From NCBI GenBank assembly GCA_018304105.1, contig JAGVWX010000007.1, forward strand, positions 1 to 64,000: 64,000 nt of DNA. The letters are read 5' to 3'. The stretch comes from Candidatus Pacearchaeota archaeon. Its GTDB lineage: Archaea > Nanobdellota > Nanobdellia > Pacearchaeales > GW2011-AR1. This document shows, one piece after another, positions 28,023 through 33,973 of this stretch; within the stretch, counting starts at the first letter, position 1, and each line of letters opens with the position of its first letter. The notes beneath the pieces are model-generated. The model was not told the origin of the DNA. It made no database searches and saw only the letters and a program-made list of their open reading frames with translations. Made by a program: the position numbers and the translations under genes.

Positions 28023-28652
28023 TTAATCAGAAAGGACGACTGCGTTTGAGGTTGCGTTCAAATAAATCACTCTCAAGCCGGAAGTTGTTCTGATGTTTCC
28101 TGTGAGGTTGACGTTGCTCTTGTAAGCTGTGACGGAATTGCCTGAACTTGTCGAGACGTTGAAGACAATGTAGTAATCCATTATTCTGATTTCATTGATG
28201 CCGTCGGGGAGATATGCTTTGACGGTTGTTCTTGCCGGATAGCCGGAGTAAAAGACTGTTTCTGACTGGGAAACTATTTTTTGTGAGAAACTTTCTATCT
28301 GGTTGAATTTCATTGTGTCTTTTATTTGTGATGAGTATGTGAGTGCGATGCCAAGAGCGGTTAAGACTATGAAAAGGACGAAAGAAATTACTATGAGATA
28401 TTCTGTGCTGATTTGTCCTTTGTTGAAGATATTTTGGAATTGTTTGCACCCACCCAACTCGCGGTCACGCTCGGGTTGCTTGCTAATTCGCTCGCGTAAC
28501 GCGCTCGCCCGCCCAGATAGTTTTGACTTGCAGTTAACTGACGAAGTCTCACGATATTCTTCGTGAGAGGCAGCCAGGCAAGCTAAATTATTTCTCGCAA
28601 ACAATTCTGGTTTTTCAACAGAATTATTTATTTGTCCTCTTTTGTTTTGCAT
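28023..28652 (-). CDS. Type IV pilin-like protein with repeat element inserted in its leader
   Basis: The frame of 209 residues opens MQNKRGQI, then 70 residues of low-plausibility sequence, then FNKGQISTEYLIVISFVLFIVLTALGIAL, a classic archaeal pilin leader and helix. The 219 bases between the two GQI copies are an inserted Family 2 element plus a 9-bp duplication. Removing it restores MQNKRGQISTEYLIV, a normal pilin of 136 residues. Because 219 is divisible by three and no stop occurs, the frame stays open. As it stands, the signal helix would be internal, so export is doubtful. It could be a pseudogene or use an internal start. Confidence 0.7.
   Translation of the reverse strand: MQNKRGQINNSVEKPELFARNNLACLAASHEEYRETSSVNCKSKLSGRASALRERISKQPERDRELGGCKQFQNIFNKGQISTEYLIVISFVLFIVLTALGIALTYSSQIKDTMKFNQIESFSQKIVSQSETVFYSGYPARTTVKAYLPDGINEIRIMDYYIVFNVSTSSGNSVTAYKSNVNLTGNIRTTSGLRVIYLNATSNAVVLSD
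28420..28629 (+). mobile_element. Family 2 MITE-like insertion with 9-bp target duplication
   Basis: The flanking sequence ATTTGTCCT occurs at 28411-28419 and 28630-28638, giving a 9-bp direct repeat around a 210-bp insert. The insert has TGTTGAA/TTCAACA ends and a perfect GAATTGTTTGC (28437-28447) / GCAAACAATTC (28597-28607) inverted repeat. Inside are GCGGTCACGC...GCGTAACGCGC and a nested hairpin shared with 6187-6227. It carries no ORF. This is a non-autonomous mobile element. Confidence 0.8.
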
Positions 28653-28715
28653 AACTCTCGGAAGGAAAAGAGATTATTAAAGTTAGTGATTAGTCCGAAG
28701 GATTGTTTATACCTC

Positions 28716-28815
28716 AATAGGACGCCAATTGAGAATGGCTGGCGTCTTGATTAGTTGGCTCACTTCGTTCGCAAGTTATCATGCCGACTCCGTTAACCGA
28801 TAAGTTGTGGGCTGT
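28716..28815 (+). repeat. Intergenic repeat Family 1 copy with tail
   Basis: The hairpin GACGCCA/TGGCGTC (within 28716-28752) is followed by GGCTCACTTCGTTCGC, AGTTATCATGCC and ACCGATAAGTTGTGGG. It lies between pilin and the 45-bp tandem repeat in the 420-base gap 28653-29072. Confidence 0.75.
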
Positions 28816-28902
28816 CTTTTATTATTTAAGTTTGATTTAGCCGATAACATACGATATTTTTGCTTTTATTAGTTCTTTAACGAAGTTAGTTTACCAATAA
28901 AG

Positions 28903-29010
28903 TTTTAAAATAAAACTTAAGAAATCCTATAATAATTATAGTTAAGATTTTAAAATAAAACTTAAGAAATCCTATAATAATTATAGTTAAGATTTTAAAA
29001 TAAAACTTAA
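28903..29010. repeat. 45-bp tandem repeat upstream of the pilus operon
   Basis: A 45-base unit begins at 28903, 28948 and (partial, 18 bases) 28993. The unit contains the palindromic AAGTTTTAAAATAAAACTT and TATAATAATTATA. It is followed by two copies of TTTACATGCA (29013-29033). The region lies 60-170 bases upstream of the first pilus gene, so it could hold several binding sites for a regulator. Confidence 0.85.
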
Positions 29011-29072
29011 ATGTTTACATGCATTTACATGCAATTAGTTAAAGTTTTAAAGGTTCATGCTTACTAATAATT

Positions 29073-29630
29073 ATGAAAAGCAGGCTGACTTTCTTAAGTG
29101 TATTTTTAGTGTTTTTGGTAATTGTTGCGCTCGCCCACATGTTCATTCAGATTGCCTTTTACGGAACGGGATATAAGGGTTTTGCGGAGAAAGGGATAAC
29201 TGGGCTGGCAGTTGAAGGGAGTGAGGCGAATGGGCTGCCGATTTCGGAGGTTATTTTGTTTTTGGAATGGGGCTTGATTTTTTTGGGAGTGGTTTTTGTT
29301 TACGCGAAGCATAATATTGACTTGAAGAAGGAGTACACTTATTTGGCTTTGCTAAAAGAAAAGAAACATTTTTCCGGGGGAACTGAGTTGGACAGGTTCT
29401 ACGAACTTTTGAAAGAAATGAAACATTTCAGGCTTGCGACGGCTGCGAAAGTTTTTGATGTTGACACGGAAATTGTAGAAGACTGGGCGCAGAGTCTTGA
29501 GTCGAGCAAGGTTGCAGAGCTGACTTATCCTAGAATTGGCGGGCCGGAAATTAAATTAATTGAAGGAGCTTTACCAAGGAATGAAGAAAGTGAAGAAGGT
29601 TCGGAAGAGGAAAAGGAGGCAAAAAAGTAG
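29073..29630 (+). CDS. Membrane protein of the pilus locus with C-terminal helical domain
   Basis: The 185-residue protein has two transmembrane helices (about residues 5-27 and 59-78) with an outer loop containing GITGLAVEG between them, then a cytoplasmic part. This cytoplasmic part has LDRFYELLKEMKHFRLATAAKVFDVDTEIVEDWAQSLESSKVAELTY, reminiscent of a winged helix used as a protein-interaction domain, and an acidic tail. It ends 4 bases before the secretion ATPase gene, so it is the first gene of the pilus operon. No family is recognised. The role in assembly is inferred from position. Confidence 0.65.
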   Translation: MKSRLTFLSVFLVFLVIVALAHMFIQIAFYGTGYKGFAEKGITGLAVEGSEANGLPISEVILFLEWGLIFLGVVFVYAKHNIDLKKEYTYLALLKEKKHFSGGTELDRFYELLKEMKHFRLATAAKVFDVDTEIVEDWAQSLESSKVAELTYPRIGGPEIKLIEGALPRNEESEEGSEEEKEAKK

Positions 29631-29634
29631 GTGA

Positions 29635-31827
29635 ATGGGAATAGATTTTTTTAACAAGAGAGGTGAAGCGCAAATGCCTGAGATGCCCGGATTGCCGAAG
29701 TTGCCATCACTGCCAAAGAGCAGCGATGAAGAAACGGTAAAGGAAGTAAAGAGCGTTTTGTTTAAGAAGCCGGATGATGAATTTATAAAAAGACATGAGA
29801 AAAGTCATAAAATAAAGGAAGAGGTTAAGAAAAGTCAGAAGATAAAAAGAGGAGCAGGGAAGGGTCATAAAATTAAAAGAAAGAAGTTGAAACATATGCC
29901 GAGAAAGCTGCCTAAGAAATCACGCCGCGAAATTAAAAAAGAAATGAAGAAGCTGGGCCATGAAATTAAAAAGAAGAAGCGGAATGAGCACGGAAAAGAA
30001 AAAGAGCTGGAAGCGAACAGCGCTAAGGCGTTTGTTAAGAAAGGCTCGCTGGTAAAGATTGCGCCAGAGAAATCAAAGAACAGCGAAAAGGTCGAAGGGT
30101 ACCGCTTGGAAGTTGATGGCGCTTATGCAGATGTCGAGTTGAGAAAAGATGAAGAAGGGCTGACTTACCATCTTTCTATTCCGGAGATAAGCACGGTAAC
30201 TTCTATTTTTCTGGATGAGATAAGGAATGAACTTATAAGCGCGACGACGGTCAGCATGAAAGAGCTTACCGACCCGACGCTGTTTTACAGGATTAAGAGA
30301 AGATTTTTGGAAGATTCAAGAAAGCTGCTCAAGGAGAAACTGCCCCATACTGAAAAAGCGGTTGAAGATTTTCTTGTTGGGACGCTGATGCAGGAAATGC
30401 TGGGTTTGGGAAAGATAGAATATCTTATCTCGGACCCGAATCTTGAGGAGATTGTCATTCCGTCTGCGAAAGAGCCAATAAGAATTTATTTTAAGAAATA
30501 TGGGTGGCTGATTACGAATATCAGAATTGACAGAGAAGACGAGATTGTTAATTATGCGAATATAATTTCAAGAAGAATTGGAAGGCAGATAACGGTGTTG
30601 AATCCGCTGCTTGACGCGCATCTCGTCACAGGAGACAGAATCAACGCCGTCTTGTATCCCGTGAGCACGAAGGGAAACACGATTACTATCAGGAAGTTCG
30701 CGAGAGATCCATTCACAATGATTGACATGATAACCGGGAAGACCTGCAATCTTGAAGTTGCGGCACTATTGTGGCTGGCGATTGAGTACGAGATGAACGT
30801 CCTGATTTCAGGCGGAACCGGAAGCGGGAAAACTTCTTTCCTGAATGCGTGCATGCCTTTCATTCCGCCGAACCAGAGAATCATAAGCATTGAGGACACG
30901 CGGGAACTGATGCTGCCGGAATTTTTGTATTGGGCGCCGTTAGTTACGAGAACTCCGAATCCAGAAGGAAAGGGCGAGGTCAGCATGCTCGATTTATTGG
31001 TAAATTCTTTGCGTATGCGCCCCGACAGAATTGTCCTCGGTGAAATGAGAAAACAGCAGGAAGCGATGGTTCTGTTTGAGGCGATGCATACAGGGCATAG
31101 CGTTTATTCTACAGTTCATGCGGATTCTGCTGCCGAGACTATTTCCAGGCTGGTAAATCCACCGCTGAATGTTCCGCCGAATCTGCTGAAGTCCGTGAAT
31201 TTGAATGTTGTTATGTTCAGGGATAGGAGAATGAATAAAAGGAGAGTTTTGCAAGTTGCTGAGTTTGAGGCGGACAAGGGCGGGGCGAAGGCAAATATTC
31301 TTTATAGGCTTATTCCGGACAGGGATGAAATTGTAAAGCACGCCGAGAGTTCGAGATTTTTTGAAGATGTGACTCGAAATACGGGCATGTCTGATGTAGA
31401 AGTCAATGAAGCGCTGAAGGAAAAGATGCGAATCCTTGAATGGATGATAAAAAATGGCTTGCGAAGCCTGGAGGAAATGGGAAGGGTGACGAACCTTTAT
31501 TACAGAAACAAAGAATTGCTGATGAAAGCGATCCAGCAGAATAATAAAAATTTGGTTATGAAGCAGGTTAAGAAGGAAGAGGAGAAGGCGAATAAGATAA
31601 TTGCAATTGAGAGAGAAGATAAATTTGTTTTGGCAGAAGAAAAGAAAGAGATGCCTGCAGAAGGAAAGAAAGAGATGCCTGCAGAAGAAAAGAAAGAGAT
31701 GCCTGCAGAAGAAAAGAAAAGCTCTGGTGAATTAGAGAATAAACAGACAATTGCCAAGCTTGACGAGCAGAAAGCAGTTGAAAAAATTCTAGGCAAAGAT
31801 TTTAAACAAAAATTGGCTTGGAAGTGA
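29635..31827 (+). CDS. Type II/IV secretion and pilus assembly ATPase (FlaI/TadA family)
   Basis: The 730-residue protein powers pilus assembly or secretion. The ATPase core shows LIYLISDPNLEEIVI-type N-domain, INAVLYPVSTKGNTITIRKF, Walker A ISGGTGSGKTSFLN (about residues 391-403), the Asp box SIEDTREL, Walker B LRMRPDRIVLGEMR and the His box HTGHSVYSTVHADS. An unusual proline- and lysine-rich N-terminal extension of about 150 residues (MPEMPGLPKLPSLPK) precedes it, and the C-terminal tail has three copies of the 8-residue KKEMPAEE repeat. It is followed after 4 bases by the platform protein gene. Confidence 0.95.
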   Translation: MGIDFFNKRGEAQMPEMPGLPKLPSLPKSSDEETVKEVKSVLFKKPDDEFIKRHEKSHKIKEEVKKSQKIKRGAGKGHKIKRKKLKHMPRKLPKKSRREIKKEMKKLGHEIKKKKRNEHGKEKELEANSAKAFVKKGSLVKIAPEKSKNSEKVEGYRLEVDGAYADVELRKDEEGLTYHLSIPEISTVTSIFLDEIRNELISATTVSMKELTDPTLFYRIKRRFLEDSRKLLKEKLPHTEKAVEDFLVGTLMQEMLGLGKIEYLISDPNLEEIVIPSAKEPIRIYFKKYGWLITNIRIDREDEIVNYANIISRRIGRQITVLNPLLDAHLVTGDRINAVLYPVSTKGNTITIRKFARDPFTMIDMITGKTCNLEVAALLWLAIEYEMNVLISGGTGSGKTSFLNACMPFIPPNQRIISIEDTRELMLPEFLYWAPLVTRTPNPEGKGEVSMLDLLVNSLRMRPDRIVLGEMRKQQEAMVLFEAMHTGHSVYSTVHADSAAETISRLVNPPLNVPPNLLKSVNLNVVMFRDRRMNKRRVLQVAEFEADKGGAKANILYRLIPDRDEIVKHAESSRFFEDVTRNTGMSDVEVNEALKEKMRILEWMIKNGLRSLEEMGRVTNLYYRNKELLMKAIQQNNKNLVMKQVKKEEEKANKIIAIEREDKFVLAEEKKEMPAEGKKEMPAEEKKEMPAEEKKSSGELENKQTIAKLDEQKAVEKILGKDFKQKLAWK

Positions 31828-31831
31828 TAAA

Positions 31832-32767
31832 ATGAAATTTAATAATAGTTCTAGTTCTTTTTTGGTTGGGAAGAAGCCGAAGAGGATGCCCTTTAGAGTG
31901 CCGTTTTCTTTTTCTCAATTAGACAAGCTAAAAAAGCGTTCTGCTGTTTTTAAGAGATTTGCCGGATACAAGCGAGACACTTTACTTTTTAAGAATTTGA
32001 AAAATGCCGGAGTCGATTTGACGAGAGAAGAGTATCTCGCAATTTGCGTCGGAGGATTTGTTATCTCGTTTTTATCTTTGTTCATTTTGTCTTCGACTCT
32101 TTTGATTGTGATGCAGGTTGAGAGAGCATTAGTTCTTGCTCTGGGCTTTGCTTTTCTGTTCGGGGGTTTTGTTTTTTTCAGCCGACTGATTTATCCGAAG
32201 GTTTACAACAACAGAAAGCAGAGAAACATCGAGAGGAATCTTATTCCGGCATTGCAGGACATGCTGGTTCAGCTTTATTCGGGAGTTCCTTTGTTCACGA
32301 TTATGATTAATATTTCTCTCGCGGATTATGAGGAATTGAGCGAGCAGTTCAAGAAAGCGGTGAAAGGAATAAATGCGGGAAGGCCGCAGATAGAAGTTTT
32401 GGAAGAGTTGGGAAAGGATAATCCTTCTGAGTTTTTCAAGAAAGCACTTTGGCAGATAAGCAATGGGATGAGGGCAGGAAGCGATATTTCGATTGTTATT
32501 CAAGACACAGTGAAGTCTTTGAGCGAGGAACAGTACATCCAGATTCAGGAATATGGAAACAAGCTGAATCCGGCAATTATGTTTTATATGCTGTCTTCGG
32601 TGATTTTGCCAGCGCTGGCTATAACTTTTCTTACGATTATCTCTTCGATAGTTGGCCTTTCTGAGGCGCTGACGCAGATGATTTTTCTTGGAATGTTTGT
32701 CGGAGTTGTAGTTATTCAAATATTGTTTTTGGGAGTTATAAAATCAGTGAGGCCGAGTTTGCTGTAA
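31832..32767 (+). CDS. Pilus platform protein, TadC/FlaJ half (T2SSF domain)
   Basis: The 311-residue membrane protein has one T2SSF-type domain: NLIPALQDMLVQLYSGVPLFTIMINIS and IQDTVKSLSEEQYIQIQEYGNKLNPAIM between hydrophobic segments, with three or four transmembrane helices. Archaeal FlaJ normally carries two such domains in one chain, as in TadB plus TadC. Here the following gene codes for the second, so the platform is two separate subunits, Tad-like. It forms the membrane base that transmits ATPase motion to the pilins. Confidence 0.88.
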   Translation: MKFNNSSSSFLVGKKPKRMPFRVPFSFSQLDKLKKRSAVFKRFAGYKRDTLLFKNLKNAGVDLTREEYLAICVGGFVISFLSLFILSSTLLIVMQVERALVLALGFAFLFGGFVFFSRLIYPKVYNNRKQRNIERNLIPALQDMLVQLYSGVPLFTIMINISLADYEELSEQFKKAVKGINAGRPQIEVLEELGKDNPSEFFKKALWQISNGMRAGSDISIVIQDTVKSLSEEQYIQIQEYGNKLNPAIMFYMLSSVILPALAITFLTIISSIVGLSEALTQMIFLGMFVGVVVIQILFLGVIKSVRPSLL

Positions 32768-33973
32768 ATGGAAAAGGAAGAAGGTAGAAAGAAGCACGAG
32801 AAAAAAATGGGCGAGCTAATGGAGGAAATAGTGCGAGCTGAAAAGAATAAAGCTAAAGGAGAAAGAGCTGCGGATAAAAAAGCCGAAGTGAAGAAAGTTG
32901 CGGAAAAAACAGTTTTTAATGAAAAAATTGCAGACAGGACGGCAAATAAAAAAGTTGAGGACAAATTTGTTTTACCTGAAAAGAAACCTGAAGAAAAAAT
33001 AGCTTCTGAAAAGAAAATTCCTGAAGCAGTTAAAGCTAAAACCCTGGAGAATCAGGCTCCGGCTAGAAAATTTGGAAAAAAATATTCTGAGAAGACGACG
33101 ACACTAAAACTATTTGCTTATTTTTTGATGGCAATGCTGGTTTTGACTATGCTTTATTATCTTGCTACGAAGAATGCTCGGAATTCGTTTGTGATTTTTT
33201 CCGTGGCGATTTTGCTCTTTAGTGTTTATTTAGTTATGAGAAAGCGGCTGAAGAGATATTACGAAATTAAAAAAATGGAGGATGTTTTCCCAGACTTTAT
33301 TTCTCTGATGTCGTCGAATTTGAGGGCGGGAATGACAGTTGACAGGGCTTTGATTCTTAGCGCTCGGAAGGAATTTTATCCGTTGGACAAGGAAATTATG
33401 CAGGTCGGAAAGGATATTTTGACTGCGAGGGAAATAAGCGGGGCGTTGTATGAAATGGGCCAGAGAATAGGCTCTGATGAAATTAGAAAGACGATTCAGC
33501 TGCTGATTTCAGGAATAAGGTCTGGAGGGAATTTGTCGGTCTTGCTGGAACAGACGTCGAACAACATGAGGGAAAGGGGATTTGTAAAGAAGAGGGCAGC
33601 CTCAAATGTTTTGATGTATGTTATTTTTATTTTCTTTGCTGTTGCAATCGGGGCGCCGATGCTGTTTTCTCTTTCTTCTGTTCTGGTTGAAATGATGACT
33701 ACTATCTTTGCGGATGTTCCCATGAGTGAAACGGCTACAAACATGCCATTCACAATCAGCTCGATAAATATTTCGCTTAATTTTGTAATTTATTTTTCTG
33801 CGGCTTTCATAATCGTGTCTGCGATTTTGGCTTCGCTGATACTTGGGCTGGTGAGCAATGGGAACGAGAAAGACGGCTTGAAATATATGATACCTCTAAT
33901 CCTGATAGGACTTGTTGTTTTCTTCTCGTCAAGAATGGTTTTGGCAGGATATTTTGCCAGGGCGTTTGGTTAG
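32768..33973 (+). CDS. Pilus platform protein, TadB/C half with lysine-rich N-terminus
   Basis: The 401-residue protein begins with about 100 residues of charged, alanine-lysine-glutamate sequence (KAKGERAADKKAEVKKVAEKT), then hydrophobic helices and the T2SSF segment FPDFISLMSSNLRAGMTVDRALIL, with LISGIRSGGNLSVLLEQTSNNMRERGFVKKRAASNVL. It is the partner of the preceding platform protein. The ATG abuts the preceding stop (no gap). The charged tail may dock to the ATPase tail, which is similarly lysine-rich; this is inference. Confidence 0.88.
   Translation: MEKEEGRKKHEKKMGELMEEIVRAEKNKAKGERAADKKAEVKKVAEKTVFNEKIADRTANKKVEDKFVLPEKKPEEKIASEKKIPEAVKAKTLENQAPARKFGKKYSEKTTTLKLFAYFLMAMLVLTMLYYLATKNARNSFVIFSVAILLFSVYLVMRKRLKRYYEIKKMEDVFPDFISLMSSNLRAGMTVDRALILSARKEFYPLDKEIMQVGKDILTAREISGALYEMGQRIGSDEIRKTIQLLISGIRSGGNLSVLLEQTSNNMRERGFVKKRAASNVLMYVIFIFFAVAIGAPMLFSLSSVLVEMMTTIFADVPMSETATNMPFTISSINISLNFVIYFSAAFIIVSAILASLILGLVSNGNEKDGLKYMIPLILIGLVVFFSSRMVLAGYFARAFG

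What the first reader, a model, noticed from the sequence alone, without database searches (positions are those of the whole stretch)
28903..29033. 45-bp tandem repeat and paired TTTACATGCA in front of the pilus operon
Two and a half copies of a 45-bp unit, each with two palindromes, then TTTACATGCA twice, lie just upstream of the first pilus gene. Spacing of 45 bp (about four helical turns) puts palindromes on one DNA face, so cooperative binding of a regulator is plausible.
Basis: partly seen in the sequence, partly recalled or inferred. Interest (0 to 1): 0.5.

Follow-up and report, generated by a model that had tools for sequence, protein, structure and literature searches.

The report
Duplicated promoter segment before pilus operon
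In this small symbiont-type archaeon (a Pacearchaeota relative) a 45-base DNA segment in front of the pilus genes has recently been copied head to tail, and each copy carries the same start signal (TATA box) that the pilus genes themselves use, so it looks like a spare-promoter duplication seen in one species only and not a special regulator array.

Summary
In detail: 2.4 perfect copies of a 45-bp unit (28903-29010), then TTTACATGCA twice (29014-29033), 40 bp before the ATG (29073) of the first gene of a type IV pilus operon in a Pacearchaeota genome. The palindrome reading is weak: palindromes this good occur in shuffled AT-rich units, and 45 bp is 4.29 helical turns, so copies do not share a DNA face. 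Each unit carries AGTTAAGATTTTAAA, a form of the element AGTTAA(N)RTTTTAAA found directly upstream of this operon in five sister species and exactly nowhere else in this genome. A promoter model trained on 170 upstream regions reads it as a BRE/TATA box. The array holds three such boxes on the + strand (scores 11.9, 11.1, 11.1), better than the gene's own (7.7, at -32). Sister species lack the array, so it is a recent species-specific duplication in a spacer also invaded by MITE-like elements. Best reading: promoter multiplication, possibly adding start sites upstream of a weak pilus promoter; neutral duplication is the main rival. No expression data exist. Interest is modest. The conserved element, and the single TATA box apparently shared by pilin and pilus operon in three sister species, are the more durable findings.

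The parts
28903..29010 (+). 45-bp tandem array, 2.4 perfect copies (in register from 28898)
   Evidence: TRF score 216, 100% match; the repeat finder D1/D2
28899..28912 (+). BRE/TATA box in the leftmost, partial unit (AAAGTTTTAAAATA)
   Evidence: PWM score 11.9
28940..28957 (+). Genus pilus-promoter element AGTTAAGATTTTAAA with BRE/TATA box AAGATTTTAAAATA, unit 1
   Evidence: exact motif; PWM 11.1
28985..29002 (+). Same element and BRE/TATA box, unit 2
   Evidence: exact motif; PWM 11.1
28927..28941 (.). Palindrome CTATAATAATTATAG, at the predicted +1 (about 28932) of the upstream TATA box; repeated at 28972-28986
   Evidence: sequence; predicted +1 from the -33 rule
29014..29033 (+). TTTACATGCA twice; TACAT(G) lies about 9 nt upstream of the gene's own BRE
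   Evidence: spacing from sequence
29037..29054 (+). The operon's own core promoter AGTTAAAGTTTTAAAGGT, -32 from the ATG
   Evidence: PWM 7.7; conserved in five congeners
29073..29630 (+). First pilus gene: membrane protein with C-terminal winged-helix domain (possible regulator)
   Evidence: AlphaFold2 model, wHTH residues 105-162, pLDDT about 90; Foldseek matches MarR/CodY/MntR-type folds
29635..33973 (+). T2SSE ATPase and two T2SSF membrane proteins of the pilus operon
   Evidence: Pfam
28672..28685 (-). BRE/TATA box of the divergent pilin gene, exactly -33 from its ATG at 28652
   Evidence: PWM 9.9
28419..28618 (.). MITE-like insertion inside the 5' end of the divergent pilin gene
   Evidence: dispersed copies in the genome; uninterrupted pilin in sister species

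Best explanation
The array is a recent tandem duplication of a promoter-type segment. Each 45-bp unit contains the core promoter element that this genus uses for the pilus operon (AGTTAARR followed by the TATA box TTTTAAA) plus the stretch down to a start-site region, so three extra BRE/TATA boxes now sit in series upstream of the operon's own, weaker one. Shown: the array, the shared element, its restriction to this promoter, its conservation in congeners, and the ranking of box scores. Inferred: that TBP/TFB bind the extra boxes and start longer transcripts at about 28932, 28977 and 29022, raising or partly deregulating basal pilus transcription (the downstream genes more than the leaderless first gene). 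The TTTACATGCA pair is a separate small duplication.
For: Exact AGTTAARRTTTTAAA occurs three times in the 1.06-Mb genome, all in this spacer. It lies in front of the same operon in G001, G004, G006, G008, and as AGTTAATATTTTAAA in G002. Shuffled units contain it 9 times in 60,000. A promoter model from 170 upstream regions peaks at -33 and scores the three array boxes 11.9/11.1/11.1 against 7.7 for the own box, which is at the 13th percentile of positioned promoters. This is the only place in 260 kb with three + strand boxes of score 11 or more within 150 bp, though two are copies of one. The unit aligns with the own promoter down to AATAATTAT (p about 0.006).
Against: TATA-like boxes come easily in AT-rich DNA: 10% of shuffled units score as high on the model, so the case rests mainly on the exact shared element. 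The unit-to-promoter alignment needs a 9-nt gap. No sister species has the array, and perfect noncoding tandem duplications occur elsewhere in this genome, so no selection for it is shown. There are no transcript data.
Confidence: 0.5

Rival explanations
1. Neutral slippage duplication: a spacer freed from constraint by mobile-element insertions happened to duplicate a 45-bp AT-rich segment; the array has no effect on expression.
For: Copies are identical, hence recent; the array is absent from seven congeners; other perfect noncoding arrays exist in 260 kb of the genome; the spacer has grown from about 51 to 420 bp and contains MITE-like elements; 10% of shuffled units carry an equally good TATA box.
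Against: The duplicated piece carries the exact promoter element that is otherwise restricted to this promoter.
Confidence: 0.33
2. Operator array: a dimeric regulator binds the palindromes in each unit (or the TTTACATGCA pair) cooperatively, as EarA, ArnR or Ptr2 bind repeated sites upstream of archaeal promoters. The first gene of the operon, a membrane protein with a winged helix, would be a candidate.
For: Repeated activator sites upstream of a weak BRE are known: four EarA sites in Methanococcus (PMC5512572) and one to three TACA(T/C) sites nine nt upstream of the BRE in Thermococcales (PMC10665913); TTTACATGCA holds TACAT at a similar place. The own promoter is weak. Gene 1 has a predicted winged helix.
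Against: 45 bp is 4.29 turns; palindromes are within chance; neither the palindrome CTATAATAATTATAG nor the TTTACATGCA pair is conserved in the congeners' promoters.
Confidence: 0.12
3. The array belongs to a mobile or dispersed repeat that landed in front of the operon.
For: MITE-like repeats are immediately upstream.
Against: The array itself has no second copy in the genome; dispersed repeats end at about 28782.
Confidence: 0.03

Closest known systems
Serial promoters of haloarchaeal rRNA operons (Halobacterium cutirubrum; Dennis 1985, described in PMC4983044)
   Same: Several core promoters in series upstream of one operon (five in H. cutirubrum, all active at different strengths).
   Different: There the activity is measured and the gene is an rRNA operon; here only sequence evidence, a pilus operon, identical units and one species.
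EarA sites of the archaellum (fla/arl) promoter, Methanococcus and Thermococcales (PMC5512572, PMC10665913)
   Same: Short direct repeats just upstream of a weak BRE/TATA of a type IV pilus-related operon; TACAT core, about nine nt before the BRE.
   Different: Here the 45-bp repeat contains its own BRE/TATA boxes; the TACAT pair is not conserved in sister species; no EarA was looked for (no query sequence on hand).
ArnR/ArnR1 and the two ArnR boxes of flaB, Sulfolobus (PMC6396743)
   Same: Membrane-bound HTH regulator of type IV pilus-like structures; paired cis elements.
   Different: ArnR has an N-terminal HTH, HAMP and C-terminal TM segments and binds TCGAC-N5-GTCGA; here gene 1 has N-terminal TM helices and a C-terminal winged helix, and no such site is present.
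Bidirectional TATA promoters of Pyrococcus furiosus (PMC6640164)
   Same: One symmetric TTTAAA box with two divergent starts 49 bp apart; sister species here have one such box between two start codons 50-52 bp apart.
   Different: Here both outputs would be mRNAs of pilus genes; in the window species the arrangement has been broken up.

Membership tests
Archaeal core promoter (BRE/TATA, leaderless) | BRE plus TATA-like octamer matching the organism's own consensus | tested here: met
   Array boxes score 11.1-11.9, own box 7.7; model consensus AAAATTTATAAACC
Archaeal core promoter (BRE/TATA, leaderless) | Fixed distance of about 33 nt to a start codon | tested here: not met
   Own box at -32 meets it; the array boxes have no in-register start codon, so they would have to make leadered transcripts
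Archaeal core promoter (BRE/TATA, leaderless) | Transcripts start there | not testable with these tools
   No RNA data for this uncultured species
Serial (tandem) promoters as in haloarchaeal rRNA operons | More than one promoter-type sequence in the same direction upstream of one operon | tested here: met
   Four + strand boxes at 28899, 28944, 28989, 29041
Serial (tandem) promoters as in haloarchaeal rRNA operons | Activity of each promoter | not testable with these tools
EarA-type activator array | TACATA or A(C/G)(C/G)TACA(T/C) sites close upstream of the BRE | tested here: inconclusive
   TACATG twice, the second ending about nine nt before the BRE (sequence; PMC10665913); flanks do not match the Thermococcales form; not conserved in congeners
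EarA-type activator array | An EarA homologue in the genome | not tested
   No EarA sequence was available to search with
Phased operator array | Spacing in whole helical turns | tested here: not met
   45/10.5 = 4.29 turns

The most novel reading that the evidence does not exclude
Copy number of a 45-bp promoter cassette acts as an evolvable strength control for pilus expression in a DPANN archaeon. By adding strong BRE/TATA boxes next to a weak, activator-dependent pilus promoter it bypasses the activator, much as the BRE deletion in Methanococcus bypasses EarA, and the copy number varies among strains.
Probability: 0.12. Interest if true: 0.5.

Novelty: new variant of a known kind. Interest (0 to 1): 0.27.

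Why it matters
If the extra boxes work, this is a natural case of promoter multiplication in an uncultured DPANN archaeon, and it shows how a shared bidirectional promoter between pilin and pilus genes can be broken up by mobile-element insertion and re-equipped by duplication. The conserved element AGTTAA(N)RTTTTAAA gives a handle on pilus control in a group where no regulator is known to me. If it does not work, it is an ordinary tandem duplication.

Tried and rejected
Array as part of a dispersed repeat: rejected, single copy. Same unit before other pilus genes or in congeners: not found. Known RNA element in the region: none above threshold. Gene 1 in Pfam or by sequence in PDB: no significant match; structure comparison gave winged helices. 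Palindromes as evidence for operators: within chance. The AGTTAA element as a general promoter feature of the genome: not enriched at promoters. Other exact motif sites in congeners: G002 C92, G003 C8 143826 and G004 C20 gave no consistent pilus link; a similar ACAGTTAAACTTTTAAA lies before a gene that looks like Sec61 beta in G002 and G008, not followed further. Literature search for tandem repeats at archaeal pilus promoters found nothing direct.

Full report
Observation. It lies 40-170 bp before the ATG (29073) of a 185-aa gene that is followed by a type IV pilus ATPase (T2SSE) and two T2SSF proteins. The genome is a 1.06-Mb assembly whose closest named relatives are Pacearchaeota/Nanoarchaeota MAGs.

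Palindromes and phasing. The unit does hold ATTTTAAAAT and CTATAATAATTATAG, but 15% of dinucleotide-shuffled units have an equally long palindrome arm and 6% as many palindromes. A 45-bp period is 4.29 turns at 10.5 bp per turn, so successive sites are rotated by about 103 degrees. The argument for cooperative binding on one DNA face therefore fails on its own terms.

What the unit contains. The repeat finder showed that TAGTTAAGATTTTAAA of the unit recurs, with two differences, at 29036-29051 in the spacer next to the gene (family D3). The same stretch stands before the orthologous operon in sister species: AGTTAAGGTTTTAAA (G008), AGTTAATATTTTAAA (G002), AGTTAAAGTTTTAAA (G001, G004), AGTTAAGATTTTAAA (G006). 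In the whole own genome the exact pattern AGTTAARRTTTTAAA occurs three times, all here; congeners mostly have it once, at this operon, with a few unrelated sites. Shuffled units hold it 9 times in 60,000. Two congeners with the operon, G005 and G007, lack it. In G006 the element lies about 50 nt before the likely start codon, with another, weaker TATA-like box between.

Promoter model. From 260 kb of the genome I took 170 upstream regions and fitted a motif by EM: AAAATTTATAAACC, with a sharp peak at -33 from the start codon (74 sequences at exactly that position), which means leaderless mRNAs and a strict BRE/TATA spacing. On this model the operon's own box (29041-29054, -32) scores 7.7, the 13th percentile of positioned promoters; the array boxes score 11.9 (28899), 11.1 (28944) and 11.1 (28989). 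Palindrome 1 is thus the TATA box, and palindrome 2 lies at the predicted start site. A caution: 10% of shuffled units reach the same score, so the model alone would not carry the case; the exact shared element does. The unit also aligns with the own promoter down to AATAATTAT just before the ATG, with a gap (p about 0.006), suggesting but not proving that the unit is an old copy of the promoter.

History. In G008, G001 and G004 the pilin gene and the pilus operon are divergent, with start codons 50-52 bp apart and one TTTTAAA box between them that fits both directions: -32 for the operon and -33 to -35 for the pilin. In Pyrococcus furiosus one such box was shown to fire both ways with starts 49 bp apart (PMC6640164). 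In the window species the two genes are 420 bp apart, the pilin reading frame is interrupted by a MITE-like insertion (28419-28618) and a second dispersed repeat sits at 28712-28772, and the pilin has a TATA box of its own at exactly -33 (28685-28672, score 9.9). The array lies between these insertions and the conserved promoter. None of seven congeners has anything like it. Perfect noncoding tandem duplications also occur elsewhere in this genome, for example around tRNA genes, so duplication is a running process here.

Mechanism. Archaeal activators such as EarA are thought to help TFB onto a weak BRE, and a strengthened BRE makes the activator dispensable in Methanococcus (PMC5512572). The pilus promoter here is weak and carries a conserved flank, so an activator is plausible. 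Stronger boxes in series upstream would add basal starts that do not need it. Transcripts from them would carry a leader of about 50-140 nt. This is inference; no RNA data exist. The TTTACATGCA pair recalls EarA sites (TACATA; one to three copies nine nt before the BRE; PMC10665913) in core and place, but it is not conserved in the congeners and EarA was not searched for.

Possible regulator. The first gene of the operon is conserved across the family and is predicted as a membrane protein with a C-terminal winged helix (residues 105-162) resembling MarR/CodY/MntR-type DNA-binding domains (best E 0.005). It is a candidate membrane-bound regulator like ArnR in concept, with the opposite domain order (PMC6396743).

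Verdict. The feature is a real, recent, species-specific duplication of promoter-type DNA. Function is open. Interest is modest.

Noticed in passing
28023-28652 (-), insertion 28419-28618: The divergent pilin gene (class III signal KGQISTEYLIV) carries a MITE-like insertion between its first codons (MQNKRGQI) and the signal peptide; ATTTGTCCT is repeated on both sides. The frame stays open but the signal peptide is now about 84 residues in, so the pilin may be inactive.
   Followed up: partly
28419-28618 and 28712-28772; copies in L033-L061: Two families of short dispersed repeats (ends TGTTGAA...GAATTGTTTGC / GCAAACAATTC...; and GACGCC...GGCGTCTTGATTATTTGGCTCACTTCGTTCGC) with tens of partial, mutually nested copies in the genome. 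G002 has a 43-bp hairpin with the same TGTTGAAAAA ends at the matching place.
   Followed up: partly
L103 (G008), L009 (G001), L110 (G004), upstream of the operon: One symmetric TATA box apparently shared by the divergent pilin gene and pilus operon, with start codons 50-52 bp apart.
   Followed up: yes
29073-29630: First gene of the pilus operon is a membrane protein with a C-terminal winged helix, conserved across the family: a candidate pilus regulator.
   Followed up: partly
L125:1318-1590; L075:4790-4960 (outside the window): Perfect tandem duplications of tRNA gene fragments: around tRNA-Gln in L125, and of the 5' part of what looks like an intron-containing tRNA in L075.
   Followed up: no
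L089:1237-1251, L098:742-756: ACAGTTAAACTTTTAAA, close to the pilus element, stands before a gene that looks like Sec61 beta in two congeners.
   Followed up: no
whole genome sample: Very sharp BRE/TATA position at -33 from the ATG, i.e. mostly leaderless mRNAs in this Pacearchaeota lineage.
   Followed up: yes
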